DNA from: Algoriphagus pacificus
GTDB lineage: Bacteria; Bacteroidota; Bacteroidia; Cytophagales; Cyclobacteriaceae
Direction: 5' to 3'
Assembly (NCBI RefSeq): GCF_017254845.1
Contig: NZ_JAFKCU010000004.1
Location: forward strand, 1 to 64,000
Length of the DNA stretch: 64,000 bases
Part shown: one piece after another, positions 10,455 through 26,075 of the stretch
How the letters are laid out: every line of letters starts with the position of its first letter
Position numbering within the stretch: the first letter of the stretch is position 1
Position numbers and translations under genes: made by a program
The notes under the pieces: generated by a model
What the model was told of the DNA's origin: nothing
Seen by the model: only the letters and a program-made list of their open reading frames with translations
The model's database searches: none

Positions 10455-10517
10455 AACTGAAAATGAAGAATTGGGAACAATTCTGATTAATAATCTCAAA
10501 ATCAAATCAATAAACCC

Positions 10518-11729: not shown

Positions 11730-11796
11730 AGCTTTCAGGAGAGATCTTGAAATCCTATTGAAATTGATTGAATTAACTTAAAACCCATTTTTAACG

Positions 11797-12819
11797 ATGA
11801 ATAATTATCCGAAATTACATAATGCAACTTGGCCGGGAATAGTAGGGAAAGGACCTGATTCCGAGCCAGTAATTCCTTTTGATACAATGCTTGCTATGAC
11901 AGCAGCAGCTGAAGTTGATGGAGTAAAATTTGACGGAGTGGATTTAGGTTTACTAGAACCACATTTTACCCTCAATGATCCTGATGAAGCGAAAGTCTTA
12001 GCGGAAAAGCTTAAAAAACATAATCTTGTAGCAGGTTCATTAGTTGCACCTATTTGGGCTGGATCCGCAATGGGAACAGCTGATCAGCGTAAAACTTTTG
12101 TCGAAATGGTTCGCAAGGCATGCGAATTTGGAAAGCAACTAAAAGAGCTTGGAGTAAGACCTTATGGTGTAGTCAGGATAGACTCAGCTGCGGGAGTGGA
12201 TGCTTGGGCAAAAGATCCGGCTGGAAATACTAAAATTATTGCAGATACATTTAGAGAAGCATGTGATGTAGCTGCGGGGTATGGAGAAAAACTTGCCGCG
12301 GAAGGTGAGATTTGCTGGGGAGCAATGCACAGCTGGAAGTATATGGTAGAGTTGATGGAAATGGTCGATCGACCAAACATCGGTCTTCAGGCAGATATGT
12401 CCCATACTTTCCTTTATACCTTGGGTTACAATGCTCCGGAACATAGGATTATTCCAAAAGATGCTGATCTACATGATAGAGAAGTGATTAAAGCAGGTTT
12501 GAAAACCGTAACTGATGCGTTGAGACCTTGGACGATTGATTTCCATGTGGCTCAAAATGATGGTTCCGTATTTGGCTCTGGTTCTCATGACAAAACAGGT
12601 CGTCACTGTCAGGCAACAGATCCAAATGGACTTTTGGATATCGCCCATGATGCTGGATATTGGCTGAGAGATGAAAATGGTCAGTTGACTAAAGCTTTCA
12701 AGCACATTTGCTGGGATGGCTGCATGTTCCCTAATGCTGTCATGGAAAATCAACAAACCTGGAATGATATCCTAGCTGCCATGATTAAAGTGCGTGAAGC
12801 TCACGGATGGAAAGCCTAA
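11797..12819 (+). CDS. TIM-barrel sugar phosphate isomerase/epimerase (xylose isomerase-like, AP endonuclease 2 superfamily)
   Basis: A 340-residue soluble protein in the IolE/xylose-isomerase-like TIM-barrel family. Candidate metal ligands are in [33 protein letters not shown] and the late [14 protein letters not shown], an E-D-H-type arrangement typical of the superfamily. There is no signal peptide. Relatives sit in 3-keto-sugar gene sets next to DUF1080 and Gfo/Idh/MocA genes, where they epimerise or eliminate 3-keto-sugars. It lies 67 bases after the cupin gene. The 117 bases downstream hold an inverted-repeat element. Confidence is high in the fold and moderate in the role. Confidence 0.85.
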
Positions 12820-12829
12820 CCTTCATCAT

Positions 12830-12915
12830 TTTACATTCAACATTCATCATTCGAAATTGAATCGGTTTTTTAATGATGAATAACGAGTGTCGAATAATGA
12901 ATTTCGAAGTGAATA
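12830..12915. repeat. Nested inverted repeats between the TIM-barrel and Gfo/Idh/MocA genes
   Basis: ATTCATCATT (12842-12851) is repeated inverted as AATGATGAAT (12872-12881), and TTCGAAATT (12850-12858) as AATTTCGAA (12900-12908). The arms interlock. There is no U-tract, so this is not an ordinary terminator. It could be an mRNA-processing or extragenic palindromic element. I saw no second copy in the window. Confidence 0.55.
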
Positions 12916-12936
12916 AGAACAATAAATAACCAGAAT

Positions 12937-14100
12937 ATGAAAGAAAAGAAATATATCAGAATAGGACTTATCGGAACAGGCCTGATGGGAAGAATTCATA
13001 CCAACGGGTATAAGAGATTGGCTGACTTTTTTCCTGAATACGAATACAATCCAGTATTGCAGGCTTGCTGCTCTAGAAGAAAGGAAAAAGCCCAGGCTTT
13101 TGCTGATCAATGGGGTTACAAATCTGTAGAAACCGATTGGAGAGAACTTTTAAAGCGGGATGATATCGATGCGGTCGATATTTGTACACCAAATGATATG
13201 CATGCTGAAATCGCTATTGCTGCTGCAGAGGCGGGTAAAATGATTTTATGTGAGAAGCCTTTGGCAAGAACTGTAGCTGAGGCGAAAGGCATGCTGGATG
13301 CAGTAGAAAAAGCCGGAGTGAAAAATACAGTTTGGTATAATTACCGCCGGGTTCCAGCAGTTACTTTGGCCAAGCAAATTGTTGCTTCCGGTAAACTCGG
13401 AAAGATTTTTCATTACAGAGCTAATTTCTTGCAGGATTGGACTATCAATCCGGATCTTCCTCAAGGAGGAGACGCATTATGGAGACTGGATGTAGATGCT
13501 GCTGGTTCCGGTGTAACGGGCGATTTATTGGCACACTGTATTGATACTGCCATGTGGATCAATGGTGGAATTAAGGATGTGTCTGCTATGACTGAGACAT
13601 TTATCAAAGAACGAGTGCATCAAGGAACCGGAGAAAAGAAAAAAGTGGGAATTGATGATGCCTGCGTTTTCCATTGCCATTTTGACAACGGTTCTTTGGG
13701 ATTGTTTGAAGCGACACGTTATGCCAGAGGACATAAGGCGCTATATACTTTTGAAATCAATGGAGAGCATGCTTCTATCCGTTGGGATCTACACGATTTG
13801 ACTCGTCTGGAGTATTTTGATCATGATGATGAAGGAAAAGTAAGAGGTTGGAGATCTATTCACGTGACAGACGGAGATCATCCTTACATGGAAAGATGGT
13901 GGATTCCAGGTACTTCCATTGGGTATGAGCACTCATTTATCCATCAAGTTGCGGATTTCTTTAAGAGCCTTGAAACTGGCGAATCATGCCACCCAACATT
14001 CAAAGACGCATTTGAAACACAAAAAGTGTGTGAAGCAGTAATTGATTCAGCAAATGCCAGAGCTTGGAAGGATACCGGAGTGGAATGGACTGAGAAATAA
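12937..14100 (+). CDS. Gfo/Idh/MocA-family NAD(P)-dependent oxidoreductase
   Basis: A 387-residue cytoplasmic dehydrogenase. The Rossmann dinucleotide-binding motif [12 protein letters not shown] lies near the N terminus. [12 protein letters not shown] and the family lysine motif CEKPLARTV follow, and the C-terminal alpha/beta domain carries [22 protein letters not shown]. The DAAGSG..D..H pattern matches the catalytic Asp/His region. Enzymes of this family oxidise or reduce ring hydroxyls of sugars and inositols, including C3 of glucosides. As the last gene of the sugar block it may interconvert a 3-keto product and the corresponding sugar. A strong terminator follows at 14126. Confidence 0.9.
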
Positions 14101-14125
14101 AAATTCTTAAATTGGAAATACATTT

Positions 14126-14163
14126 AAAAGCTCAATCAAGATTTACATTGATTGAGCTTTTTT
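14126..14163 (+). terminator. Strong rho-independent terminator between the Gfo/Idh/MocA gene and the sulfatase
   Basis: AAAAGCTCAATCAA (14126-14139) and TTGATTGAGCTTTT (14148-14161) are perfect 14-base arms around an 8-base loop, ending in T6. The sulfatase ATG at 14180 lies only 17 bases beyond, leaving little room for a promoter between them. Confidence 0.92.
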
Positions 14164-14179
14164 GATTAACCCAATAACT

Positions 14180-15685
14180 ATGGAAAAGAAAAAAAGCACA
14201 GCGAACAAGGGACAATTGAAAGTCCTTTTTTTTGGCTTTATCTCACTTTTGGCATTTGGTTGCGACCAAAAACCAATTGAGGAAACTGCAGAAAGTACTC
14301 AAAAAACAAACATTATTTTCATCCTAGCAGATGATTTGGGATATGGGGATCTAGGCTTTTTAGGTCAGCAGTATATAGAAACTCCCAATATTGATAAACT
14401 GGCAAAGCAAGGAATGTTCTTTTCCAATTTTTACTCGGGTTCCACCGTATGTGCACCATCACGCTCATCTTTTTTGACGGGGCTGCACACGGGCCATACG
14501 CCAATTAGAGGAAATTCAGAGGTGCAGCCGGAAGGGCAACTGCCTATGCCTGATTCAGTGATGACAGTGGGCAAAGCTTTGCAGCAAGCAGGTTATGTGA
14601 CAGGAGCATTTGGGAAATGGGGTTTAGGGTTTATTGGAACTTCAGGTGAGCCTGTTAATCAGGGGTTTAATGAGTTTTTTGGATACAATTGCCAACGCTA
14701 TGCCCATCGTTATTACCCGGATTATTTATGGCACAATGATCAAAAAGTTGATTTGCCAGGAAATGATTGGACTAAGACTGAAGACTATGCCCCAGATTTG
14801 ATACAGGAAAAGACACTGGCTTTTATTGATGACAATAAAGACAAGCCATTTTTCTTATTCATGCCGATCGTGACTCCTCATGCTGAATTGGCAGCTCCGG
14901 ACGATGAGATTATGGCAAAGTACAAAGCCAAGTTTCCGGATGAAAAACCTTTTATAGGTGGAAAAGGAGCCGATTATGGACCAGATATGAGAATTCCGGG
15001 TTACCAATCCCAACCGTACCCGCATGCTACTTTTGCCGCGATGGTAGAGAGAATCGATAGATATGTTGGTGAAGTCTTGGATAAACTGGAAGAAAATGGA
15101 CTTGCTGAGAATACATTGATCATATTTTCCTCAGACAATGGAGCACACCGGGAAGGAGGGGCAGATCCTGAGTTTTTTGATAGCAATGGACCTTTTAGAG
15201 GTTTTAAAAGAGACTTGTATGAAGGTGGTGTGAGAGCACCGATGATCGCTTGGTGGCCAGGTAAAATCAAAGCTGGAACTACCTCCGATCATGTGGCAGC
15301 ATTTTGGGATTTGTTACCGACTTTCTCTGAAGTTGCCGGAAATAAGATTTCAGAATCTATTGATGGGATTTCTTTTGTGCCGGCTATGTTGGGTCATGAT
15401 GATCAGCAAGCAAAGCATGAATATTTGTATTGGGAATTTCATGAGCAGGGCGGAAAGCAAGCAATTCGTCAAGGGAATTGGAAAGCGGTTAAGTTGGATG
15501 TTTTCAATAGTGAGACACCAACACTTGAATTATATGACCTGAGCCAAGATCCTGGAGAAACCACTAACCTTGCTGCTTCCAATCCAGAGAAGATGGCTGA
15601 AATGGAAAAATTGATGGAAACATCGCATCTCGAAAACCCTATTTTCAAATTTTACAGAAGCGAAAAGGAAGCCGCTGAAAAGTGA
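14180..15685 (+). CDS. Sulfatase lipoprotein (formylglycine-dependent, S1 family)
   Basis: Using ATG 14180, the 501-residue product starts MEKKKSTANKG and has lipobox LLAFGC (Cys28). IIFILADDLGYGDLG gives the first metal-binding aspartates. The nucleophile motif C-A-P-S-R at residues 91-95 carries the Cys that is converted to formylglycine; then SSFLTGLHTGHTP. The lower metal site is IIFSSDNGAHREGG and the C-terminal subdomain begins near ELYDLSQDPGETTNLA. It hydrolyses sulfate esters in the periplasm, presumably on a glycan or glycoside; closest in look to arylsulfatase A/N-acetylgalactosamine-6-sulfatase types. It sits between the sugar block and the ebo cluster. The strong terminator just upstream suggests attenuation by read-through or a promoter inside the preceding gene. 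No maturation enzyme is in the window. Confidence 0.93.
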   Translation: MEKKKSTANKGQLKVLFFGFISLLAFGCDQKPIEETAESTQKTNIIFILADDLGYGDLGFLGQQYIETPNIDKLAKQGMFFSNFYSGSTVCAPSRSSFLTGLHTGHTPIRGNSEVQPEGQLPMPDSVMTVGKALQQAGYVTGAFGKWGLGFIGTSGEPVNQGFNEFFGYNCQRYAHRYYPDYLWHNDQKVDLPGNDWTKTEDYAPDLIQEKTLAFIDDNKDKPFFLFMPIVTPHAELAAPDDEIMAKYKAKFPDEKPFIGGKGADYGPDMRIPGYQSQPYPHATFAAMVERIDRYVGEVLDKLEENGLAENTLIIFSSDNGAHREGGADPEFFDSNGPFRGFKRDLYEGGVRAPMIAWWPGKIKAGTTSDHVAAFWDLLPTFSEVAGNKISESIDGISFVPAMLGHDDQQAKHEYLYWEFHEQGGKQAIRQGNWKAVKLDVFNSETPTLELYDLSQDPGETTNLAASNPEKMAEMEKLMETSHLENPIFKFYRSEKEAAEK

Positions 15686-15861
15686 GGAATTATTCTTGGC
15701 TCCATCCAGTTGTAAAAATGTGTTAGGAAGCCAAATTTGGTAAGAAAGAAGTGGCTGATTTTCAGGAAATGGAAAACATGATTTTTCTCATTTTAGCCTG
15801 AAAAAGCCCCTTTTTTTGACCAATGGTGTTATTCTAAAATCAAAAAATTAGAATATTGCCT

Positions 15862-15882
15862 TACCTTTATTGCCCCTGTTTA
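15862..15882 (+). promoter_or_regulatory. Putative eboA promoter (-7-like TACCTTTA box plus TTGCCCCTGTTT)
   Basis: TACCTTTA (15862-15869) matches the Bacteroidota -7 consensus TAnnTTTG at 7 of 8 positions. It is followed by TTGCCCCTGTTT (15870-15881). The same 12-mer preceded by ACCTTT recurs just upstream of eboD at 18721-18737. The eboA ATG is about 25 bases downstream. No clear -33 box is visible. Confidence 0.45.
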
Positions 15883-15906
15883 ATCCATCGAAATAGATTC
15901 TTTGAT

Positions 15907-16809
15907 ATGTCAAGTACAAATCAGATAAACCCAATTTCAGCATTCATCCTTTCAGTTTTAAGCGAAAAATCGGAAGAGAAATCCACAGTCTGGTTGGCTC
16001 AGAAACGGGAAAAGATTCTCATTTCAGGCAAGGAAATGGATTTCTTTATGGCATTTAGCCAAGCTTCCAGGTATTTCAAAAAGAATCCTTTGAACCTCAC
16101 CGAGGATCAGATAAACGAGATCCAGTCATTATCCCCTGGATTGAGAATAGATTTATGGGATCAACTGCAGTTGGCAAGAGTTTATTTGCTGCTTCAGTAT
16201 CCTGCCGCAGATGCTGCCTCCTGGAAAAACACCCTTCAGAAACTGTTTGAAACAGGGGACATGTATGAAATTGAAGCTTTGTATGCTGCCTTACCGATCA
16301 TGCCATATGCTGAGGAGATGGTAGCAAGAGCCAGAGAAGGATTGAGAACAAATATCACTTCGGTTTTTGATGCAGTGGCATTGAACAATCCTTATCCTGC
16401 TACCTATTTTGATGAGAGTGCCTGGAATCAGATGGTCGTGAAAGCTATTTTTATGCAAAGACCACTTTTCAAAATCCAGAACGCAGAGCAGAGAGCAAAT
16501 CAGGAATTGGCAGATATTATCATTGATTTTGCACATGAACGATGGTCTGCAGGAAGGGATGTCATCCCGGAATTGTGGAGGTTTGTCGGCCCTTTTATTT
16601 CTGAAAAAAACCTGAAGGATATCAAAAAGGTTGTTTCCTCAGAAAACAAATTGGAAAGGAAAGCTGCTTTGCTTGCTTGTAGCATGAGCGATTTTTCTGA
16701 GGCAAAAGACTTGATAAACGAATACCCAGAAATTAAAAAAGATATAGATTCAGGTCATTTAACCTGGGAGTTGATCGGACAAGAAACCCTCGAAAAAGCT
16801 CTCAGCTAA
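15907..16809 (+). CDS. eboA: EboA domain-containing protein
   Basis: A 300-residue all-helical soluble protein beginning MSSTNQINPISAFILS at ATG 15907; a longer TTG-initiated reading from 15856 is less likely because it would overlap the promoter-like box. Landmarks are LSPGLRIDLWDQLQLARVYLL, ETGDMYEIEALYAALPIMP, VFDAVALNNPYPATYFDESAWNQMV and HERWSAGRDVIPELWRFVGPF, which I recognise as the EboA family. EboA has no known enzymatic activity; ebo genes in cyanobacteria are needed for moving the scytonemin precursor to the periplasm. It is the first gene of a complete eboA-F cluster, 45 bases before eboB, and follows its own promoter-like box. Confidence 0.9.
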   Translation: MSSTNQINPISAFILSVLSEKSEEKSTVWLAQKREKILISGKEMDFFMAFSQASRYFKKNPLNLTEDQINEIQSLSPGLRIDLWDQLQLARVYLLLQYPAADAASWKNTLQKLFETGDMYEIEALYAALPIMPYAEEMVARAREGLRTNITSVFDAVALNNPYPATYFDESAWNQMVVKAIFMQRPLFKIQNAEQRANQELADIIIDFAHERWSAGRDVIPELWRFVGPFISEKNLKDIKKVVSSENKLERKAALLACSMSDFSEAKDLINEYPEIKKDIDSGHLTWELIGQETLEKALS

Positions 16810-16854
16810 AATTTACAGAATCGAAAATAATTAGAATCCCCAAATTCACCTCTT

Positions 16855-17766
16855 ATGGAAATGTATATAGATCCACATATTCACGTTACTTCTAGAACCA
16901 CAGATGATTACGAAGCGATGCGAAAAGCGGGTATCGTTGCGATTATTGAGCCTGCATTTTGGCTTGGCCAACCCCGAACAGAAGCTGCAAGTTTCAAGGA
17001 TTATTTCAGCAGCTTGGTAGGTTGGGAGCGATTCAGAGCAAAGCAATTCGGGATTGTACATTATTGCACTATTGGATTGAATTCTAAAGAGGCAAATAAT
17101 GAACCTTTGGCAGAGCAAGTGATGGAATTACTTCCACTCTATGCAGGAAAGCAGGGAGTTGTGGCGATCGGTGAGATTGGTTATGATGATCAGACAGCTG
17201 CTGAGGATAAGTTTTACAGATTGCAATTGGAATTGGCAAAAGACATGGATCTGCCAGTGATGATTCATACGCCACATAGAGATAAGAAAAAAGGCACCAC
17301 TAAAAGTATGGATGTGAGTGAAGAACACGGGCTTGCTCCAAATATGGTGATTGTCGACCATAACAATGAAGAGACTGTCAAAGAAGTCTTGGATAGAGGT
17401 TATTGGGCAGCATTTACGATCTATCCGCATACCAAAATGGGTAGCGAGCGAATGGTAGAAATCGTCAAGCAATATGGTCCAGAGAGAATCATTGTGGATT
17501 CAGCCGCTGACTGGGGGATTTCTGATCCTTTAGCTGTACCAAAGACTGCTGCTTTGATGAGAAAAATGGGCATTCCTGAAGAGCATATCAGAATGACTTG
17601 TTATCAAAATGCTTTGGCTGCTTATGCACAAAGTGGCCAAATGGATGAAATGGATTGGTTGAAAGCAGAGCCTATCGATCAGACCAAGAAAATGTCAGGA
17701 AATTCAGTGTTGAGAGGAGGGCAAGTTCCGCGTGTGGAAGGTCCAAGTGATCGAGTGGAGAATTAA
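16855..17766 (+). CDS. eboB: TatD-family metal-dependent hydrolase EboB
   Basis: A 303-residue TIM-barrel amidohydrolase. Metal ligands appear as HIH (residues 8-10), GEIGYDD, MIHTPHR, VIVDHNNEE and the late IIVDSAADWG. This is the order expected for TatD-like hydrolases, although the long FWLGQPRTEAASFKDYFSSLVGWERFRA insertion is characteristic of the ebo-cluster branch and not of DNA-repair TatD nucleases. Substrate is unknown. It is three bases upstream of eboC and surely co-transcribed with it. The context argues for action on the ebo pathway metabolite rather than on DNA. Confidence 0.88.
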   Translation: MEMYIDPHIHVTSRTTDDYEAMRKAGIVAIIEPAFWLGQPRTEAASFKDYFSSLVGWERFRAKQFGIVHYCTIGLNSKEANNEPLAEQVMELLPLYAGKQGVVAIGEIGYDDQTAAEDKFYRLQLELAKDMDLPVMIHTPHRDKKKGTTKSMDVSEEHGLAPNMVIVDHNNEETVKEVLDRGYWAAFTIYPHTKMGSERMVEIVKQYGPERIIVDSAADWGISDPLAVPKTAALMRKMGIPEEHIRMTCYQNALAAYAQSGQMDEMDWLKAEPIDQTKKMSGNSVLRGGQVPRVEGPSDRVEN

Positions 17767-17769
17767 TAG

Positions 17770-18678
17770 ATGCGTCAATCCAAGATATTTGCCCATTTGC
17801 AGCTGACCAGACCGGCAAATGTAGTCACTGCAATTGCTGATATTTTAGCCGGTTTTGCGATTGCTGGAATAGGGATTTATTTGACCTCCTTTTCCAATCA
17901 GGATGCATATTTAATTGATCTTGCCTGGCTGGTTTTGGCCACAATTGGATTGTATGCTGGAGGAGTCGCATTCAACGATGTTTTTGATGCAGATCTGGAT
18001 TCTGTGGAGAGGCCAGAAAGACCGATTCCCAGTGGAAGAGCTACAGTAAAAAGTGCGGCAATCATGGCTTTTTTACTGCTTTTGATGGGAGTCATTGCTG
18101 CTTATCAGGTTTCCATGACTTCAGCTTTAATTGCTTTTGCAGTAGCTCTATGTGCTGTAATTTATGATTACTGGGGAAAACATCAGAATTTTTTAGGTCC
18201 CATCAATATGGGCTTGTGCCGAGCCGGCAATTTATTGCTTGGAGTAAGTGTTGTTCCCGATCTAGTTGAAAAATTTGCTTTTATGGGCTTGATCCCATTG
18301 GTTTTTGTGGCAGCAATCACCATGATCAGTAGTGGAGAAGTACATGGAAAAAATAAAAAGGCCCTTTACGGTGGTTTGGGAATGTATCTCATCATCATTG
18401 CCGCTATTGTCATTTTAGCCTTTACAATAGGAGGAAAACCTCTGGAAGTAATTCCATTTGTAGCTTTATTCGCCTACATGATATTCCCTCCATTGGTCAA
18501 AGCCATTCAAAAGCAAGAACCCAAATTGATAGGAAAAGCCGTAAAAGCAGCTGTTATTTCCCTGATTATATTAAATGCCTCACTGTCTGCTGCCTTTGCA
18601 GGATGGCTGTATGGCGTCCTTGTGTTAATCTTGTTGCCAATTTCTCTTTGGCTTGCCAGAAAATTTGCTGTTACCTGA
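17770..18678 (+). CDS. eboC: UbiA-like membrane prenyltransferase EboC
   Basis: A 302-residue membrane protein with about eight or nine hydrophobic segments. It carries the first UbiA aspartate motif NDVFDADLD at residues 69-77, followed by SVERPERPIPSGR. The second canonical aspartate motif, D-x-x-x-D before a K/T-rich loop, is not evident; its place is taken by SSGEVHGKNKKALYGG with Glu190. UbiA enzymes attach isoprenoid chains to aromatic or polyol acceptors using Mg-diphosphate. The ebo context suggests prenylation of a small cyclic acceptor. A second, canonical UbiA protein in this window (41420-42292) retains both motifs, which makes the difference meaningful. Confidence 0.9.
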   Translation: MRQSKIFAHLQLTRPANVVTAIADILAGFAIAGIGIYLTSFSNQDAYLIDLAWLVLATIGLYAGGVAFNDVFDADLDSVERPERPIPSGRATVKSAAIMAFLLLLMGVIAAYQVSMTSALIAFAVALCAVIYDYWGKHQNFLGPINMGLCRAGNLLLGVSVVPDLVEKFAFMGLIPLVFVAAITMISSGEVHGKNKKALYGGLGMYLIIIAAIVILAFTIGGKPLEVIPFVALFAYMIFPPLVKAIQKQEPKLIGKAVKAAVISLIILNASLSAAFAGWLYGVLVLILLPISLWLARKFAVT

Positions 18679-18720
18679 AATTTTCCAATTAGGAAAACTA
18701 TAAATTGCACGCTGAAAAGA

Positions 18721-18740
18721 ACCTTTTGCCCCTGTTTTAG
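18721..18740 (+). promoter_or_regulatory. Putative internal promoter upstream of eboD
   Basis: ACCTTTTGCCCCTGTTTTAG repeats the box in front of eboA, with TTGCCCCTGTTT identical at 18726-18737. It resembles a Bacteroidota -7 TTTG box followed by the initiation region, and lies 12 bases before the eboD ATG, in the longest gap inside the cluster (74 bases). Confidence 0.45.
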
Positions 18741-18752
18741 ATTGAGTAATTG

Positions 18753-19904
18753 ATGAAAAGAGTTATCGAACAATCATTTTCTGTACCCTATACCTATCCG
18801 GTAATATTCTCTGAAAATATATTTGACGCGGCAGAAGAAAGCTTGGCCAAGTTGCTGGATAATGGCAAAGGAGGTAAAGCATATTTTGTTGTAGACAGTG
18901 GCGTGGCTGATACTCATCCCGAGCTGATCGATCAGATAAAAACTTATGCAGCTGCACATGCTTCCAAGTTCAAGCTTTGTGCAGAACCATTGATTGTGCC
19001 AGGCGGAGAAGCTTCCAAAAATGATCCTCAATTCTATGAGAAAGTTGTAGAAGCGACCCATTTATATGGGATCGATAGACACTCTTACATCGTAGCAATC
19101 GGTGGAGGAGCTGTATTGGATATGGTTGGCTTTGCAGCAGCTGTTTCCCATAGAGGAATCAGACTAGTGAGAATTCCTACCACGGTTCTTTCTCAAAATG
19201 ACTCTGCTGTAGGTGTGAAAAATGGAATTAATTCTTTTGGTAAGAAAAATTACCTAGGCACGTTTGCTCCACCCTATGCAGTATTGAATGATTTTAATTT
19301 TCTTCTGACTTTGGATGATCGCGATTGGAGATCCGGAATTTCAGAAGCTATAAAAGTTGCCTTGATTAAAGATCTGGATTTCTTCGAATGGATCGAAGCA
19401 AATGCCAGTGCTTTGGCAGCAAGGGAAATGGCGCCCATGCAAGAGTTGATTGTCAGATGTGCACAGATGCATTTGGACCATATTGCAGGAAGAGATCCTT
19501 TTGAGATGGGTTCTTCTCGACCACTGGATTTTGGTCATTGGGCAGCACATAAAATGGAACATCTTAGCAAGTATCAAATCCGACATGGCGAGGCTGTTGC
19601 GATGGGGATTGCGCTGGATTCCACTTACTCATTCCTAAAAGGCATGATTACAGAATCGGAACTAGATCGCATTATTTCTGTCATAGCGTCTTTAGGATTC
19701 CAATTATACCATGAAGTATTGTCTGGAGAAATGCTCTTTAAGGGATTAGAAGAGTTTCGCGAGCATTTGGGCGGACAATTGACTATTATGCTTTTGACTA
19801 AATTGGGAGTAGGCCAGGAAGTTCATGAGATGGATCAAACGCTAATCCTTGCGGCGGTGGAAAAATTAAAAGCTTTCCAAGCAGATCGGTTGATTGCCAA
19901 TTGA
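18753..19904 (+). CDS. eboD: 3-dehydroquinate synthase-like protein EboD
   Basis: A 383-residue member of the dehydroquinate synthase/sugar-phosphate cyclase superfamily, starting at ATG 18753. NAD-binding and catalytic motifs are YIVAIGGGAVLDMVGFAAA and RIPTTVLSQNDSAVGVKNGIN. The zinc triad is visible as Glu198 (SGISEAIKVALI), His262 (LDFGHWAAHKME) and His278 (IRHGEAVAMG). The family cyclises a sugar phosphate to a cyclitol ketone. The sequence around the second zinc ligand differs from AroB-type enzymes (LNFGHT), and the gene is embedded between eboC and eboE, so a dedicated role in ebo metabolite formation is more likely than shikimate synthesis. It has its own promoter-like box. Confidence 0.9.
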   Translation: MKRVIEQSFSVPYTYPVIFSENIFDAAEESLAKLLDNGKGGKAYFVVDSGVADTHPELIDQIKTYAAAHASKFKLCAEPLIVPGGEASKNDPQFYEKVVEATHLYGIDRHSYIVAIGGGAVLDMVGFAAAVSHRGIRLVRIPTTVLSQNDSAVGVKNGINSFGKKNYLGTFAPPYAVLNDFNFLLTLDDRDWRSGISEAIKVALIKDLDFFEWIEANASALAAREMAPMQELIVRCAQMHLDHIAGRDPFEMGSSRPLDFGHWAAHKMEHLSKYQIRHGEAVAMGIALDSTYSFLKGMITESELDRIISVIASLGFQLYHEVLSGEMLFKGLEEFREHLGGQLTIMLLTKLGVGQEVHEMDQTLILAAVEKLKAFQADRLIAN

Positions 19905-19939
19905 TTTAGCCCTTTATTCCTAAAAATTTATTCTTGATT

Positions 19940-21154
19940 ATGTTAATAGAAGGAAAACACCTGTCTTATTGTACCAATATTCACCCGGGAGAAAGCTGGA
20001 AGGAAACCTTCGAAAACCTCAAAAAATACATTCCCCAAATCAAATCCGACTTAGCTCCAGATCAGGCTTTCGGAATTGGATTAAGACTTTCTAATGAAGC
20101 TAGCCTTGTTCTAGCTCAGCCAGAAGAGCTTACGGCTTTTAAAAGCTGGTTGAAAGAGCAAAATGCCTATGTTTTTACCATGAATGGTTTCCCTTACGGG
20201 GGCTTTCATGGGCAGGTAGTCAAAGATGATGTTCATACACCCGACTGGACAACCAAAGAAAGAAGAGATTACACCATTAGACTTTTTGAAATACTTGCGG
20301 AATTGCTTCCTGATCAAATAGAAGGAGGGATTTCTACCTCTCCTTTGTCTTATAGATTTTGGTTTTCTGCCCAGAATGAATTGGATCGAGCGATTACCAA
20401 ATCCACTACTCACCTTGTTCAGGTAGTGGCTAAATTGATTGAGATCAAGCAAAAAACCGGTAAAACCCTGCATTTGGACATTGAACCGGAACCAGATGGG
20501 ATTCTAGAAAATACAGCAGAAATGTTGGCTTTTTTCAAAGACTGGTTGCTTCCGATGGGAACCAGAGATTTGATGGATACGCTTCAAATGAGCAAGGAGG
20601 ATGCAGAAAAGGCAATCAAAGAACATATCAGGCTTTGTTATGATGTTTGCCATTTTGCCTTGGTTTATGAGAAACCTAAAGATGTTTTTCAAGCTATGGA
20701 TGCGGCAGGTATTAAAATCGGAAAGATCCAGATTTCGGCAGCATTGAAATTGAAATTACCCAAGGGTTTGGAAGAACGGAATGCAATCAAAGATACGCTA
20801 CTTCCTTTTGCGGAGTCTACATACCTTCATCAGGTAATCGGAAGAAATTCCGAAGGTCAACTCGAATCATTCCGAGATTTGGATCAGGCTTTGAAACAAT
20901 TGGAAAGCACAGAACTGGAAGAATGGAGAATCCATTTCCACGTTCCGGTATTCTTGTCTGATTATGGGAAAGTTGCTTCGACTCAGTCTGATATTTTGGA
21001 GGTACTAACCTATCTCAAAACCAATCAGGTTACCGATCACTTGGAAGTAGAAACATATACTTGGGATGTCCTTCCAGAAGGGATGACTATGGATATTCAA
21101 AGTTCCATTATTCGTGAGCTTTCTTGGGTTACTGAAAACATGAAGCAATCATGA
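19940..21154 (+). CDS. eboE: Metabolite traffic protein EboE (TIM-barrel-like)
   Basis: A 404-residue soluble protein starting at ATG 19940 (MLIEGKHLSYCTNIHPGESW), 35 bases after eboD. Conserved landmarks are LSYCTNIHPGESW, GFPYGGFHG, HLDIEPEPDGILENT, LCYDVCHFALVYE, KIQISAAL and IHFHVPVFLSDYG, with metal-type His, Glu and Asp residues arranged like xylose-isomerase-type TIM barrels. The family is the one named metabolite traffic protein EboE. No signal peptide or membrane span is present, so despite its name it should act in the cytoplasm. Its stop codon overlaps the eboF start by four bases (ATGA), indicating translational coupling. Confidence 0.9.
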   Translation: MLIEGKHLSYCTNIHPGESWKETFENLKKYIPQIKSDLAPDQAFGIGLRLSNEASLVLAQPEELTAFKSWLKEQNAYVFTMNGFPYGGFHGQVVKDDVHTPDWTTKERRDYTIRLFEILAELLPDQIEGGISTSPLSYRFWFSAQNELDRAITKSTTHLVQVVAKLIEIKQKTGKTLHLDIEPEPDGILENTAEMLAFFKDWLLPMGTRDLMDTLQMSKEDAEKAIKEHIRLCYDVCHFALVYEKPKDVFQAMDAAGIKIGKIQISAALKLKLPKGLEERNAIKDTLLPFAESTYLHQVIGRNSEGQLESFRDLDQALKQLESTELEEWRIHFHVPVFLSDYGKVASTQSDILEVLTYLKTNQVTDHLEVETYTWDVLPEGMTMDIQSSIIRELSWVTENMKQS

Positions 21155-22524
21155 AAAAAACCGTTGTCATTGATGTGGTGGCATTGTCTCAGCGATTGAT
21201 CGGTGAGCATACACCCTTTTTGAAAAAATGGACTTCAAAAACCCATCAGGCTACAATCAATCCTGTTTTACCTGCTGTTACTACATCGGCTCAAACGACA
21301 TATTTGACTGGGAAGTGGCCAACTGATCATGGAATCGTAGGAAATGGTTGGTACTTCGAGGATGAGTGTGAAATCAAATTCTGGAGACAATCCAATAAGC
21401 TGGTTCAGGCTAAAAACATCTGGGATCTTGCCAAAGAGAGAAATCCAGATTTCACCGTATCCAATATGTTTTGGTGGTACAACATGTATTCCACTGCAGA
21501 TTTTCAGGTTACTCCTAGGCCACTTTATCCATCTGATGGAAGGAAGTTGCCGGACTGTCATACGCATCCTATGGAAATGCGTGACAGACTTCAGCAGGAG
21601 CTTGGTCAGTTTCCATTGTTTTCTTTTTGGGGACCAAATACAAGTATAAAATCCACTCAATGGATCGCTGATGCTTCAAAGAAAGTCGATGAATGGAAGA
21701 ATCCGACTTTGACTTTTATCTATCTTCCTCACCTTGATTATGGACTTCAAAAATATGGGATTGATTTTTCTAAAATCTCTAAAGATTTGAATGAAATCGA
21801 TGCGGTTTGTGAGGATCTGATTACCTATTATGAAAAGAAAGGAGCAGAAGTGATTTTGCTTTCTGAATATGGAATTACATCGGTGAATAATCCGGTGCAT
21901 TTGAACCGTATTTTTAGAAATGCGGGTCTGATTCAAGTGAAGAATGAATTGGGGCTTGAAACATTGGACGCAGGCACTAGCCGAGCTTTTGCAGTAGTTG
22001 ATCATCAATTGGCTCACATACATGTAAAGGATAAAAGTGATCTGCCATTGGTAAGGAAATTACTGGAAGAGACGCCCGGAGTTGAGCTAATTCTAGACGA
22101 GGAAGGAAAAAAGCAATATCATTTAGATCATGATCGCTCCGGGGATTTGGTCGTTGTGGCAGACAAAGATTCTTGGTTTACCTATTATTTCTGGTTGGAT
22201 GATGCAAAAGCGCCAGATTATGCAAGATGTGTTGCGATCCACCAAAAGCCAGGATATGACCCTGTAGAGTTGTTTCTAAATCCTTCGATAAAACTACCAT
22301 TGGTTAAAGTTGGTCTAAAGGTTCTTAAAAAGAAATTGGGCTTCCGTTACTTGATGGATGTTATTCCACTGGATGCTAACTTGGTAAAAGGAGCGCATGG
22401 AAGAATCCCAGAAGACCGCCTAGATCATCCAGTTTTCTATTCAGGGGATAAAAGTTTGACTTCAGAAAGTCAAATAGATCCAACAGCAATTCAAAGCCTG
22501 ATTCTTAAAAAAGTATTTGGTTAA
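21151..22524 (+). CDS. eboF: Alkaline phosphatase/NPP-superfamily protein EboF
   Basis: A 457-residue protein of the nucleotide pyrophosphatase/phosphodiesterase superfamily. Asp8 (VVIDVV), the Thr-rich nucleophile loop PAVTTSAQTTYLTG (about 41-54), Asp196 (LPHLDYGLQKYG) and His364 (AIHQKPGYDP) match the fold. Several usual metal ligands appear changed: the His four residues after Asp196 is Gln200, and the D-H pair of the vsDHG motif reads SEYG (Glu239, Tyr240). There is no signal peptide, so it is probably cytoplasmic unlike most NPPs. It is the last ebo gene, coupled to eboE by a four-base overlap and followed by a strong terminator. Confidence 0.88.
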   Translation: MKKTVVIDVVALSQRLIGEHTPFLKKWTSKTHQATINPVLPAVTTSAQTTYLTGKWPTDHGIVGNGWYFEDECEIKFWRQSNKLVQAKNIWDLAKERNPDFTVSNMFWWYNMYSTADFQVTPRPLYPSDGRKLPDCHTHPMEMRDRLQQELGQFPLFSFWGPNTSIKSTQWIADASKKVDEWKNPTLTFIYLPHLDYGLQKYGIDFSKISKDLNEIDAVCEDLITYYEKKGAEVILLSEYGITSVNNPVHLNRIFRNAGLIQVKNELGLETLDAGTSRAFAVVDHQLAHIHVKDKSDLPLVRKLLEETPGVELILDEEGKKQYHLDHDRSGDLVVVADKDSWFTYYFWLDDAKAPDYARCVAIHQKPGYDPVELFLNPSIKLPLVKVGLKVLKKKLGFRYLMDVIPLDANLVKGAHGRIPEDRLDHPVFYSGDKSLTSESQIDPTAIQSLILKKVFG

Positions 22525-22574
22525 TCATCTTCCGATTCAATCTAGCAATTTCCGAAAATCAATTTTTGCCCAAG

Positions 22575-22609
22575 AAAAAAGCCATCCCCTAACAGAGGAT
22601 GGCTTTTTT
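22575..22609. terminator. Bidirectional terminator between eboF and the convergent ThuA gene
   Basis: AAAAAAGCCATCC (22575-22587) pairs with GGATGGCTTTTTT (22597-22609) around a 9-base loop. The A-run and T-run make it active on both strands. Confidence 0.92.
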
Positions 22610-22628
22610 ATGGTTATAAGGTTGGTTA

Positions 22629-25600
22629 TTATTTTGAATTGAAAGTAATACCAGAGATAATAAAGGTTCCGGCACCACCGTCATTTTTAGGCTTTGTAAT
22701 CACAAACAACTTATGGAGTTTACCATCCGCGTTTCCAGTAACTGGAATCGTAAAAGGTCCAAAATTTGGAGCTCCTTCTGGTCCGCTTGATGGTTTCTGA
22801 GCAAATGTTGTGGATCCAACCAATTCACCTGTTGGTGAATCTAGTCTAAGTTCGAAGTCATATTCGTCTCCTAAGCTTCCCATCGTTACCGCAATAGCTG
22901 TCACAGAACCAATACCTGTCAGATCAACATTATCAATTGAGAAAGAAGCTTCATTTTTAGGGACCATCACAAGGTTGTTTCCATCATAGCTCATGCTGCT
23001 ATATCCACCAGCATAATCACCGGTATTAGCCATGTCAATGGTATTGCTTCTCAGCAATAGGGTTGTAGAACCAGTCAATGGTTTTACATTTTCTCCCCCC
23101 TGATCGGTGTAAGAAGCATTTAGCATCAAAACACCTGAAGAAGTCGGCGTTTTACCTGCAGTTGCATCCACTGTACCAGATGCAGGTAGAGATGGAGTAG
23201 TTACTTGATCCAAAGAAAGGATGTAAGCAACCAAAGCATTCAGTTCAGAATCTTTCAATTCAGGATTAGCAGGCATAGCGACTTCACCCCAAACTCCTCC
23301 GCCACCATTTTTGATTTTGTTTTTCAGGTAATCAATATCTCTTTGATTGTATTTCTTCGCTACGTCCACGTATGCAGGACCAACTGATGCTTCCTCCTCT
23401 TTGTGACAAGTTTTACAAGTCAAGGTCGTGAATAAGGATTTACCCATCATGGCTTCGGTCATTACTTTGTGACCCATGTTAGATTCGGCCTGATCCAAAC
23501 CTTCGATATAGTCTGCAGAAACGTACAAAGTACTCATGTCAGTAGCTGCTTCAGGATTGTCTGCATCTTCTACAGAAACATTGTAGGCTACTTTTTTACC
23601 AGGGAAATAGAAGGACTGATTTCCATCAATTGAAATGCTAACGGTTGGAGCAATATTTCCAGAGTAAACACTTTCAATTCCACTGGTTCCAGTTAATCCA
23701 TCAGGATCTTTAGCAGTTACTTTAACCTCATATTCTCCAATTGTATTGAAGGTATGGGTCAAAGAAGGAACATCCGTGGTTTTAGTCTCACCGTTTCCTA
23801 GATCCCATGAATAAGTCAAAGCATCGTTTTCAGGGTCAGAAGAACTTGCAGTAAATGTCACCGTCAATGGATTCGAGCCAGAGGTTTTATCTGCTGAAAT
23901 ATCAGTAACTACAGGAGCTCTATTTCCACCATTGAAATCAATTCTGAATAAACCAGAATCAGGATTCTTGGAAAACCAGCCATTTCCATACTCCAAAATG
24001 TAAATTCTGCCATCAGGACCCATTTCCATGTCTATCATGGCATTGAATTTTGTGCTTGGCATAAACGGCTCCATCTTATCGAAATCACCGTTTTCTTTCA
24101 TTGTTACCACTTTGATCCAGCCTCTGATCCAATCATAGATAAAGATTTTTCCATCGAAATAATCAGGGAATTTGGTGTCTGCAGTATACATGTCAGAATA
24201 ATACACAGGACCTGCCATGGCATTTCTACCACCTGATCCTACTTGTGGGAATTCCTTGGACTCGCCATAAGGATACCAGATAAATGCTGGAGCAAGTTCA
24301 GGAAGCTGGGTAATACCGGTGTTGTTTACAGAGGTGTTTTTCGGTCCTTTCGGATCAAATGCATCTCCAACCTCACCAGTCTCATAATTATATTCACGGT
24401 ATGGATAGTTATTTCCTACAGCAAATGGCCATCCGAAGTTTCCAGCTTTTCTAGCTTGGTTTAATTCATCATATCCACGAGGTCCTCTTGTCTCCATGCT
24501 ATCAGCTCTGGCATCAGGACCAACTTCACCCCAATACAAGAAACCATTTTTCTGATCAATGGATATTCTGTATGGGTTTCTATTTCCTTGTACATAAATT
24601 TCAGGTCTGGTTCCCTCAGTTCCAACAGGATATAAGTTGCCTTCCGGAATGTCATAAGAACCGTCTTCATTTACTTTGATTCTAAGGATTTTACCTCTTA
24701 GGTCATTTGCATTACCTGAAGATCTTCTTGCATCGTATTGCTCGTAGCCTGATCTCTGATCCAATGGAGCATAACCATTGTTTTTGTATGGGGAATCAAA
24801 CTGGTTGAAAGGAGTAGAGTTGTCACCTAATGAAAGGTACAAGTTTCCATCTTTGTCAAAAGCAATGGAACCTCCAGTATGGCAGCAAATGTCTCTATCG
24901 GAATGAACGTCCAAAATGACTACTTCAGAACCCATGTCCCAAGTATCATTCTTAAAAGTAAATCTTGAAAGTCTGTTGATTTCCTCATCACCTGCAGGCG
25001 CGTAGTAAACAAACACGTATCCATTTTCTGCATAATTCGGATCTTTTTGGATACCCATCAAACCCTCTTCTGCATTTACGCCTTTTACTTCAGTTTTCCA
25101 GTAAACATCCAATTTAGCAACCTCTTTCAACTCCTCAGTTTCGTTGTCAAAGAATAGGATTTCACCTCTTCTTTGTGCCACAAGGATATCCAGATTTGGA
25201 AGAATTGTCATTTCTGTAGGCTCGGTGAAAGCAGCATATGCCAAAGGAGTTTTGGTAAATCTGTTTTCTTCCGGTACGCGCTTGCTTTTTGCTTTTGAAT
25301 AATCCAGTTCTAGATTATCACCAATTGCATATTTAATACCTTCTAAAAGGTGTTTTAAGTAAAGCTCTTCAGTATAAGATTCATTGGTATGTCCTCCACC
25401 TGTATAAAAGGCTCTTCCTCCATCATAGTCATGATACCAAGCGATTGGATGCTCACCCATGTCAAAACCACCCTTGTAGGAGTTTTCATCAAGTTCTAAA
25501 AGCACATTTACATCAGGGTTCATGTTTTTGTAGCTGTACCATTCATCTGTTCTAGCCCATGGACTTGGTAAAAATGAAGTAGCTGGATTGTTCTTATCCA

Positions 25601-26075
25601 CTACAGTGATTTCTCCTGGCTGAACATTTGGGTTAGGATCATTTATGCCTGGGTGATCGGTGAAATAACCACCAACAAGGCGGCCATACCAGCCCCAATC
25701 ATATTCTGTATCTGCAGCTGCATGGACTCCGACAAAGCCACCGCCAGATTGAATGTATCTTTCAAAATCAGCCTCTTGGTAATTGTCAAGGACATCGCCA
25801 GTGGTGCTCAAGAAAATTACAGCTGAATACTGAGCCAAATTCTCTTCGTTGATTTTGTCAGATTGTGTTGTTGTGTCAACTAGGAATCCGTTTTCGGATC
25901 CTAATTTTTGAATAGCTGCTATGCCATTCGGAATGGATTCATGGTGAAAACCTGCTGTTTTACTGAAGATAAGTACTTTTGGTTCTCCAGAGCGTTTGTT
26001 CTTACAGCTCCAGGTGCCTAAACTTACCAACACAGCTAATACTAGCAGGGTACGTAGGTTTTTCGGGAAATTCAT
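22629..26075 (-). CDS. Multidomain lipoprotein: ThuA, PQQ-type sugar dehydrogenase propeller, PKD, cytochrome c, CBM-like domain
   Basis: A 1148-residue mosaic with an exported N terminus ending in a lipoprotein-like TWSC (Cys24). Domains in order: ThuA/trehalose-utilisation-like glutaminase-fold (about 33-250; KVLIFSKTAGFHHESIP, GGGHTNESYTEE); glucose/sorbosone dehydrogenase propeller (about 265-715; GLMGIQKDPNYAENGYVFVYY, GGSIAFDKDGNLYLSLGDN, PDGRIYILEYG); PKD domain (about 720-800; TYSWDLGNGE); cytochrome c with heme site CKTCHKE near residue 886; and a C-terminal carbohydrate-binding-like beta domain (about 950-1148). It likely oxidises a sugar outside the cytoplasm and transfers electrons to the attached heme. 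It stands alone between two terminated units. Confidence 0.88.
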   Translation of the reverse strand: MNFPKNLRTLLVLAVLVSLGTWSCKNKRSGEPKVLIFSKTAGFHHESIPNGIAAIQKLGSENGFLVDTTTQSDKINEENLAQYSAVIFLSTTGDVLDNYQEADFERYIQSGGGFVGVHAAADTEYDWGWYGRLVGGYFTDHPGINDPNPNVQPGEITVVDKNNPATSFLPSPWARTDEWYSYKNMNPDVNVLLELDENSYKGGFDMGEHPIAWYHDYDGGRAFYTGGGHTNESYTEELYLKHLLEGIKYAIGDNLELDYSKAKSKRVPEENRFTKTPLAYAAFTEPTEMTILPNLDILVAQRRGEILFFDNETEELKEVAKLDVYWKTEVKGVNAEEGLMGIQKDPNYAENGYVFVYYAPAGDEEINRLSRFTFKNDTWDMGSEVVILDVHSDRDICCHTGGSIAFDKDGNLYLSLGDNSTPFNQFDSPYKNNGYAPLDQRSGYEQYDARRSSGNANDLRGKILRIKVNEDGSYDIPEGNLYPVGTEGTRPEIYVQGNRNPYRISIDQKNGFLYWGEVGPDARADSMETRGPRGYDELNQARKAGNFGWPFAVGNNYPYREYNYETGEVGDAFDPKGPKNTSVNNTGITQLPELAPAFIWYPYGESKEFPQVGSGGRNAMAGPVYYSDMYTADTKFPDYFDGKIFIYDWIRGWIKVVTMKENGDFDKMEPFMPSTKFNAMIDMEMGPDGRIYILEYGNGWFSKNPDSGLFRIDFNGGNRAPVVTDISADKTSGSNPLTVTFTASSSDPENDALTYSWDLGNGETKTTDVPSLTHTFNTIGEYEVKVTAKDPDGLTGTSGIESVYSGNIAPTVSISIDGNQSFYFPGKKVAYNVSVEDADNPEAATDMSTLYVSADYIEGLDQAESNMGHKVMTEAMMGKSLFTTLTCKTCHKEEEASVGPAYVDVAKKYNQRDIDYLKNKIKNGGGGVWGEVAMPANPELKDSELNALVAYILSLDQVTTPSLPASGTVDATAGKTPTSSGVLMLNASYTDQGGENVKPLTGSTTLLLRSNTIDMANTGDYAGGYSSMSYDGNNLVMVPKNEASFSIDNVDLTGIGSVTAIAVTMGSLGDEYDFELRLDSPTGELVGSTTFAQKPSSGPEGAPNFGPFTIPVTGNADGKLHKLFVITKPKNDGGAGTFIISGITFNSK

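What the first reader, a model, noticed from the sequence alone, without database searches (positions are those of the whole stretch)
15862..22609. Complete six-gene ebo cluster of unknown product
EboA, a TatD-like hydrolase, a UbiA-like prenyltransferase, a dehydroquinate-synthase-like cyclase, EboE and an NPP-superfamily protein occur in order A-B-C-D-E-F, on one strand, bounded by a promoter-like box and a strong terminator. Established knowledge: ebo clusters occur in cyanobacteria, in endosymbionts of eustigmatophyte algae and in other bacteria, and affect scytonemin precursor movement in cyanobacteria; a related cluster in Pseudomonas (edb) repels nematodes. Inference: together they could make and prenylate a cyclitol-like compound that functions at the membrane. 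No peptide or polyketide synthase is nearby, so the cluster may act alone.
Basis: partly seen in the sequence, partly recalled or inferred. Interest (0 to 1): 0.78.

Follow-up and report, generated by a model that had tools for sequence, protein, structure and literature searches.

The report
Six-gene ebo operon, product unknown
A marine-type bacterium carries the known six-gene ebo operon, which probably builds a fat-tailed ring-sugar compound at the cell membrane; one of its supposed enzymes appears to have lost the usual metal centre, which gives a concrete test of an open question.

Summary
Window 15907-22524 (+) holds eboA-B-C-D-E-F, co-directional, gaps of at most 74 bases, a 4-base eboE/eboF overlap, a strong terminator (22575-22609) and a conserved upstream block. 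The window is Algoriphagus-like (Bacteroidota). This is a new instance of a published cluster; the isoprenoid-cyclitol idea was published in 2016.

What the tests add:
(1) The genes travel together: eboA, C, D and F all occur in 67 of 196 family genomes, none in 124, some in 5. EboE is in 69 of 73 genomes of the genus.
(2) EboD is not the shikimate enzyme: the genome has its own AroB, and EboD shares Asp259 and His338 with the sedoheptulose cyclase ValA.
(3) EboC keeps the first Asp-rich motif but not the second.
(4) EboF has the NPP fold, but four of six metal-ligand positions are replaced (Val10, Gln200, Glu239, Tyr240) in 45 of 45 EboF read, from at least four phyla. An ordinary two-metal phosphodiesterase role is doubtful.
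(5) EboA models as a helical solenoid; 13 of 13 Verrucomicrobiota/Planctomycetota genomes searched show no EboA, while 12 of 13 have D and F.

Best reading: a membrane prenyl-cyclitol pathway with EboF and EboA as non-standard parts. The product remains unknown.

The parts
15774..15869 (+). conserved upstream block, candidate promoter/regulatory region of the operon
   Evidence: invariant runs in window, L044 and L045 against diverged DNA before it; no sigma-70-type site on the + strand there
15907..16809 (+). eboA, 300 aa, helical-solenoid protein
   Evidence: NF035938 176.2 bits; AlphaFold model pLDDT 95.4, almost wholly helical; no Foldseek match with E <= 0.001
16855..17766 (+). eboB, 303 aa, TatD-like metal-dependent hydrolase family; the most conserved Ebo protein
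   Evidence: PF01026 63.6 bits; H8, H10, E107, H138, H169, D219 invariant in 19 of 19; nearest solved chain 3guw, AF_1765
17770..18678 (+). eboC, 302 aa, UbiA-superfamily prenyltransferase (Ubi-297 type)
   Evidence: NF035940 416.3 bits; motif 1 N69 D70 D73 D77 in 46 of 46; in place of an Asp-rich motif 2 stands [SA]xxE in 46 of 46 (SSGE in the window)
18700..18752 (+). conserved eboC-eboD gap, possible internal promoter or leader; shares the 12-mer TTGCCCCTGTTT with the eboA leader of this window
18753..19904 (+). eboD, 383 aa, sugar phosphate cyclase superfamily, not AroB
   Evidence: NF004852 573.4 bits, aroB model below cut-off; best solved match 4p53 (ValA); residues H240, S255, D259, H338; separate AroB in genome
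19940..21154 (+). eboE, 404 aa, xylose-isomerase-like TIM-barrel family
   Evidence: NF035939 528.5 bits; E182, E184, D235, H238, H332, H334, E369, E371 invariant in 27 of 27
21151..22524 (+). eboF, 457 aa, NPP-fold protein with replaced metal ligands
   Evidence: PF01663 197.7 bits; model matches 1ei6 E 1.5e-17; V10, Q200, E239, Y240 at ligand positions in 45 of 45
22575..22609 (.). terminator hairpin between convergent eboF and the gene at 22629-26075 (-), probably used from both sides
   Evidence: 13-pair stem with A-run and T-run, -21.9 kcal/mol, z -5.43

Best explanation
The six genes are one ebo operon that makes a membrane-associated prenylated polar compound. Proposed flow: EboD cyclises a sugar phosphate (most likely sedoheptulose 7-phosphate) to a cyclitol; EboE and EboB, two metal-dependent barrel enzymes, isomerise or trim it; EboC, inside the membrane, joins it to a prenyl chain. 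EboA is a helical-solenoid scaffold rather than an enzyme. EboF keeps the NPP fold, the Thr nucleophile position, one Asp and one His, but not the two-metal centre, so it more likely binds the product or a phosphate-bearing partner, or does a different reaction, than acts as a standard phosphodiesterase. The compound is close to constitutive in this genus and probably serves a membrane or export function. Shown here: membership, order, co-occurrence, residue patterns. Inferred: substrates, order of steps, role.
For: Membership and order. Co-occurrence of A, C, D and F: 67 of 196 family genomes have all four, 124 none, 5 some. EboE in 69 of 73 genus genomes, 24 of 296 phylum-wide. EboD: own AroB at 345.6 bits elsewhere; [quoted passage not shown] EboD has Asp259 where two solved DHQS and the own AroB have Asn and ValA has Asp, and His338 in the column of a ValA His; the Lys pair of DHQS/AroB next to it is Gln/Arg and Glu in EboD. 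EboC: motif 1 intact; PMC9235831 reports farnesyl transfer by the Maribacter homologue Ubi-297, and its abstract says Zobellia and Algoriphagus homologues were produced and examined too. EboB and EboE: metal-type residues invariant. EboF: fold. EboA.
Against: No product is known. The only assayed EboC activity is on aromatic acceptors, best on quinolines; all 14 tested were aromatic (PMC9235831 passages). In Nostoc each of the five single ebo mutants made accumulates the same unmodified monomer and no lipid-linked monomer was found (PMC6282210), which points to transport. EboC lacks the Asp-rich motif 2, which weakens the case for ordinary prenyl transfer. EboD keeps His266 like DHQS (Pro in ValA) and lacks the Arg shared by DHQS, AroB and ValA (Ser255), so its substrate is not settled. 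Glu and Gln can bind metal, so EboF may still hydrolyse with one metal. The HMMER alignment of EboF to 1ei6 is weak.
Confidence: 0.5

Rival explanations
1. The operon is a small-molecule translocation aid: the Ebo proteins (or a lipid carrier they make) move aromatic metabolites from cytoplasm to periplasm, as proposed for the scytonemin monomer.
For: PMC6282210 (abstract, section 6 part 1, section 8 and passages seen): in the ebo mutants studied the monomer stays in the cytoplasm; NCBIfam calls EboA and EboE 'metabolite traffic' proteins. In 5 of the 34 loci L089-L123 (L100 left out) a gene family of exporter adaptors lies near the ebo genes (identity checked for two of the five).
Against: No scytonemin genes were noticed in the window (reading only; the genome was not searched for them); no transporter lies in the operon; of the six only EboC belongs to a membrane-protein family; genus-wide presence implies a use unrelated to one pigment.
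Confidence: 0.27
2. EboC farnesylates a quinoline or other aromatic acceptor and the operon makes a prenylated aromatic metabolite rather than a cyclitol.
For: PMC9235831 (section 5 and passages seen, abstract among them): Ubi-297 of Maribacter farnesylates 6 of 14 aromatic acceptors, preferring 8-hydroxyquinoline-2-carboxylic acid; homologues from Zobellia and Algoriphagus were also produced.
Against: Acceptors were an aromatic panel tested in crude membranes, so a cyclitol could not have been found; nothing in the operon resembles a quinoline pathway.
Confidence: 0.1
3. EboD is a second dehydroquinate synthase that feeds the shikimate pathway.
For: NCBIfam NF004852 is named 3-dehydroquinate synthase and EboD scores 573 bits.
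Against: The own-genome AroB scores above the aroB cut-off and EboD below it; EboD has His240, Ser255 and Asp259 where two solved DHQS and the own AroB have Lys, Arg and Asn, and lacks their Lys pair at 336-337; PMC5133447 section 3.4.2 argues the same from a tree.
Confidence: 0.03
4. The product is a grazer-deterrent secondary metabolite, as in the Pseudomonas EDB cluster.
For: EDB mutants in eboA, eboD or eboE homologues become edible for C. elegans, as reported in PMC6282210 section 8 (the original paper was not seen).
Against: Presence in 69 of 73 genomes of the genus is unusual for a niche metabolite; no further biosynthetic gene is constantly linked.
Confidence: 0.1

Closest known systems
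ebo operon of Bacteroidota, Cyanobacteria and eustigmatophyte plastids (Yurchenko 2016, PMC5133447)
   Same: six genes, same order ABCDEF, same families
   Different: this instance is in another Algoriphagus-like genome; the EboF ligand replacement and the EboC motif-2 absence are not discussed in the sections and passages I saw
Nostoc punctiforme ebo cluster (Klicki 2018, PMC6282210)
   Same: eboA, B, C, E, F homologues
   Different: there tied to scytonemin genes, with eboD outside the cluster proper; here eboD is inside and no scytonemin genes were noticed in the window
Ubi-297 prenyltransferases (PMC9235831)
   Same: EboC is of this group, whose figure 3 includes Algoriphagus machipongonensis
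   Different: acceptor in vivo unknown
[quoted passage not shown]
   Same: Asp and His at two aligned positions, KVAL run, metal ligands
   Different: EboD has His266 where ValA has Pro, Ser255 for Arg, His240 for Met, and its own GVKN and GHW runs
NPP / phosphonoacetate hydrolase superfamily (1ei6, 7mw8)
   Same: fold, Thr nucleophile position, one Asp and one His ligand
   Different: Val, Gln, Glu and Tyr at four of six metal-ligand positions

Membership tests
ebo operon (ABCDEF type) | all six families present, one strand, order A-B-C-D-E-F | tested here: met
ebo operon (ABCDEF type) | EboC, EboE and EboA models over curated cut-off | tested here: met
   EboC 416 (250), EboE 528 (250), EboA domain 176 (50); the longer EboA_family model, 247, is below its 320
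ebo operon (ABCDEF type) | single transcript | not testable with these tools
   spacing of at most 74 bases and a 4-base overlap suggest it
3-dehydroquinate synthase (AroB) | aroB model score over cut-off | tested here: not met
   238.4 against 305; own AroB 345.6
3-dehydroquinate synthase (AroB) | Lys, Arg, Asn and Lys substrate positions (K250, R264, N268, K356, numbering recalled) | tested here: not met
   H240, S255, D259 and Gln/Arg-Glu at 336-337 in EboD; two solved DHQS and own AroB keep Lys, Arg, Asn and the Lys pair
[quoted passage not shown] residues not listed in the passages seen) | tested here: inconclusive
   D259 and H338 agree with ValA; H240, S255 and H266 differ
UbiA prenyltransferase | Asp-rich motif 1 NDxxDxxxD | tested here: met
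   46 of 46 EboC
UbiA prenyltransferase | Asp-rich motif 2 | tested here: not met
   [SA]xxE in 46 of 46 EboC; own-genome UbiA L002 has KDIEDRPGD
NPP-type phosphodiesterase | fold and PF01663 score | tested here: met
   197.7 over 23 bits; 1ei6 E 1.5e-17
NPP-type phosphodiesterase | six metal-ligand positions Asp, Asp, His, Asp, His, His (set recalled) | tested here: not met
   V10, D196, Q200, E239, Y240, H416 in 45 of 45 EboF
TatD-like hydrolase (EboB) | HxH, Glu, His, His, Asp metal set (recalled) | tested here: met
   invariant in 19 of 19
TPR protein (EboA, suggested in PMC6282210) | TPR-like helical repeats | tested here: inconclusive

The most novel reading that the evidence does not exclude
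EboF is a repurposed NPP-fold protein whose two-metal centre was replaced once, before the spread of ebo across phyla, by an invariant Val/Gln/Glu/Tyr set, and which now performs a new reaction or carries the prenyl-cyclitol; the ebo pathway then makes a previously unrecognised class of membrane lipid that is close to a core component in Algoriphagus.
Probability: 0.3. Interest if true: 0.7.

Novelty: new member of a known kind. Interest (0 to 1): 0.42.

Why it matters
The ebo operon is widespread, conserved and without a known product. The residue results turn a vague question into short tests: does EboD use sedoheptulose 7-phosphate, does EboF bind zinc at all, and what lipid disappears when eboC is deleted. 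If the product is a membrane lipid or carrier, it would explain why unrelated phenotypes (sunscreen export, nematode deterrence, algal symbiosis) depend on the same genes.

Tried and rejected
Rejected: EboD as AroB; chance assembly of six ORFs. Led nowhere: sigma-70 scan and TTTG/TAnnTTTG pattern upstream of eboA; Rfam search of 15000-23000, no hit; profile search of solved structures with EboE, no hit at E 0.01; Foldseek on EboA, no match with E <= 0.001, and the VIA second look gave only common helical-repeat matches (a family that is not listed is not excluded). The extra gene between eboE and eboF in L061 and L068 is a YhcG nuclease (L067 has a gene of the same size there, not checked), and the five genes after eboF in L064 are DUF4221, so I do not count them as pathway genes. 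Literature: in the rows listed by searches I saw no paper on EboF residues or on the product; they cover open-licence PMC only and show capped lists; supplements, the original EDB paper and the ValA structure paper (not held) were not seen.

Limits: the 80 loci are the best 80 of 128 relatives. EboF residues were read in 43 aligned sequences (window plus 42 loci) plus L138 and L139; the other Verrucomicrobiota EboF were scored, not read. As control for EboF only 4 of the 22 other PF01663 matches of the genome were aligned (L124, L126, L127, L128); a fifth, L129, aligned, was dropped as sulfatase-like (by signature, recalled). All 4 keep the first Asp, the Asp+His and the Asp-His pair; L128 has Ser at the nucleophile position and a gap at the last His. 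EboA absence in 13 genomes: the tool's own controls did not ring there, but the same model rings in 70 of 196 family genomes. One of 14 handles asked (L088) was not held. The five partial genomes are G008, G105, G147, G155 and G189; G008, G105 and G189 are below 90% complete, G155 has some 880 contigs and G147 has an EboC match just under the cut-off. Co-occurrence was counted for A, C, D and F in the family; B was not searched by genome, and E only in the genus and phylum samples. My Bacteroidota list includes a Balneolaceae MAG (L084).

Full report
What is there. Six co-directional genes occupy 15907-22524: eboA 15907-16809, eboB 16855-17766, eboC 17770-18678, eboD 18753-19904, eboE 19940-21154, eboF 21151-22524. 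Gaps are 45, 3, 74 and 35 bases, and eboE and eboF overlap by four. HMM searches place A, C and E in ebo-named models over cut-off (A by its domain model only), D in NF004852, B in TatD (PF01026) and F in the NPP family PF01663. A stable hairpin with A and T runs lies at 22575-22609 between eboF and the convergent gene 22629-26075. Upstream, 15774-15869 is strongly conserved in two relatives, as is the eboC-eboD gap, but no consensus promoter was found.

Whose genome. The nearest named loci are an Algoriphagus MAG (EboE 86% identical) and A. lutimaris (80%), so the window is Algoriphagus-like; no call named the organism itself.

How general. Among 80 loci carrying EboE (the best 80 of 128) the order ABCDEF on one strand is complete in 30 of 34 loci that I listed as Bacteroidota (one is a Balneolaceae MAG with C, B and A reversed), 7 of 9 cyanobacterial and 1 of 2 proteobacterial loci; 4 of the 7 exceptions are short or cut contigs. 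Within Algoriphagus the flanking genes fall into several unlike sets while the six genes stay together, apart from one inserted gene between eboE and eboF in three loci. In 196 genomes of the family EboC is over cut-off in 69, the EboD model in 71, EboA in 70 and EboF, at E <= 1e-30, in 71; 67 have all four, 124 none and 5 some. EboE is in 24 of 296 genomes across the phylum and 69 of 73 in the genus, 49 of 51 if only good assemblies count. This pattern, rare in the phylum but nearly fixed in the genus, argues for a standing function rather than an occasional secondary metabolite. That step is inference.

A dispersed form elsewhere. In 34 loci of Verrucomicrobiota and Planctomycetota (L089-L123 without L100) E stands alone or with a B of about 41% identity and, in part of them, a distant C-like UbiA; two have D beside E. 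Searching 13 genomes (12 of these loci plus the Phycisphaerales locus L087), 12 have an EboD-type cyclase over cut-off and 12 an EboF match, with D and F adjacent in 8 (coordinates); none shows EboA. So B, C-like, D, E and F look like the shared pathway and EboA an addition; B and C-like were seen only in part of these loci and were not searched by genome. PMC5133447 reports unclustered ebo genes in three Planctomycetes, with eboD missing in two drafts (section 12 part 1 seen); its main text does not contain the word Verrucomicrobia.

EboD. [quoted passage not shown] Aligned with ValA, two solved DHQS and the genome's own AroB, EboD keeps the three metal ligands (E198, H262, H278, 47 of 47). 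It has Asp259 (47 of 47) where DHQS and AroB have Asn and ValA has Asp; His338 (47 of 47) in the column of a ValA His; Gln/Arg and Glu at 336-337 (one sequence of 47 has Ser and one Ala there), where DHQS and AroB have a Lys pair; His240 (47 of 47) for their Lys; and Ser255 (45 of 47, Ala in 2) for an Arg that ValA, DHQS and AroB all have. His266 is as in DHQS, not ValA. EboD is thus neither a DHQS nor a plain ValA. Position numbers of reference enzymes are recalled.

EboC. Motif 1 is intact in 46 of 46. The second Asp-rich stretch seen in other UbiA proteins of this genome (for example L002, KDIEDRPGD) is absent: [SA]xxE stands there in 46 of 46, with Arg or Lys second in 41 and Ser in the window; the C-like proteins of Verrucomicrobiota show the same kind of run. 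PMC9235831 (section 5 and passages) describes the first motif and a farnesylating activity on quinolines; motif 2 is not mentioned in what I saw.

EboF. The AlphaFold model (pLDDT 79.3, weak at 109-139 and 366-404) matches phosphonoacetate hydrolase 1ei6 (E 1.5e-17) and Xanthomonas NPP. Alignment with four NPP relatives of the same genome, and a weak HMMER alignment to 1ei6 for the two later sites, place Val10, Gln200, Glu239 and Tyr240 at four of the six metal-ligand positions; Asp196, His416 and the nucleophile Thr44 remain. Each of these seven positions is the same in 43 of 43 aligned EboF (position 8 varies: Asp 26, Asn 17), and L138 and L139 agree, 45 in all. Decay would scatter; strict conservation suggests a selected new function. 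That is inference. PMC5133447 calls EboF a putative hydrolase of a phosphate-bearing substrate; its main text does not contain 'residues' or 'active site'.

EboA, EboB, EboE. EboA models confidently (pLDDT 95.4) as a helical solenoid with no specific structural relative found. EboB and EboE keep their metal-type residues in 19 of 19 and 27 of 27 sequences. EboB is the most conserved protein: mean identity to the window 83.7% in the Bacteroidota list against 49.5 to 70.7% for the others, and 74.9% in cyanobacteria against 42.7 to 62.8%.

How it most likely works. EboD forms a cyclitol, EboE and EboB modify it, EboC prenylates it in the membrane, EboA scaffolds, EboF binds or converts the product without the standard two-metal chemistry. 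The enzyme part follows the published proposal (PMC5133447 section 3.7); a scaffold role for EboA was also suggested in PMC6282210; the EboF reading is mine. The transport reading of PMC6282210 is compatible if the lipid is the carrier.

Verdict. Real, correctly identified, already a published kind; the product question stays open. The points I did not meet in the papers seen are the EboF ligand replacement, the EboC motif 2, the split B-E / D-F form in Verrucomicrobiota and the near-fixation in the genus.

Noticed in passing
L098, L099, L101, L107, L108: An exporter adaptor family (MacA/HlyD-like, checked in L098 and L107 only) lies near the ebo genes in five Verrucomicrobiota loci; in L098 it is directly upstream of eboE on the same strand.
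   Followed up: partly
L061:7261-8424, L068:11310-12494: A YhcG-type nuclease gene sits between eboE and eboF, an insertion into the operon.
   Followed up: yes
L064:12987-18708: A run of five DUF4221 genes directly follows eboF.
   Followed up: partly
window 15870-15881 and 18726-18737: The 12-mer TTGCCCCTGTTT occurs only twice in the window, before eboA and before eboD (0.42 expected allowing one mismatch); it is kept before eboD in L044 and L045 but not before their eboA.
   Followed up: partly
window 22629-26075 (-): A 1148-aa fusion of ThuA, glucose/sorbosone dehydrogenase, PKD and cytochrome c domains is convergent with eboF, with the terminator hairpin between them.
   Followed up: no
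window 9387-15685: Sugar-utilisation neighbourhood: DUF4432, xylose-isomerase-like, Gfo/Idh/MocA and sulfatase genes, with a TonB-dependent receptor at 912-4004 further upstream.
   Followed up: no
window 41420-42292 (-): A second UbiA-family protein with an Asp-rich motif 2 (KDIEDRPGD), next to proA/proB-like genes (by my reading).
   Followed up: no
L041, L042 (genome G370): EboE matches in two pieces in two reading frames in one Bacteroidota genome.
   Followed up: no
genome G501: Two EboE copies with equal scores on two contigs; may be assembly duplication (contamination 6%).
   Followed up: no
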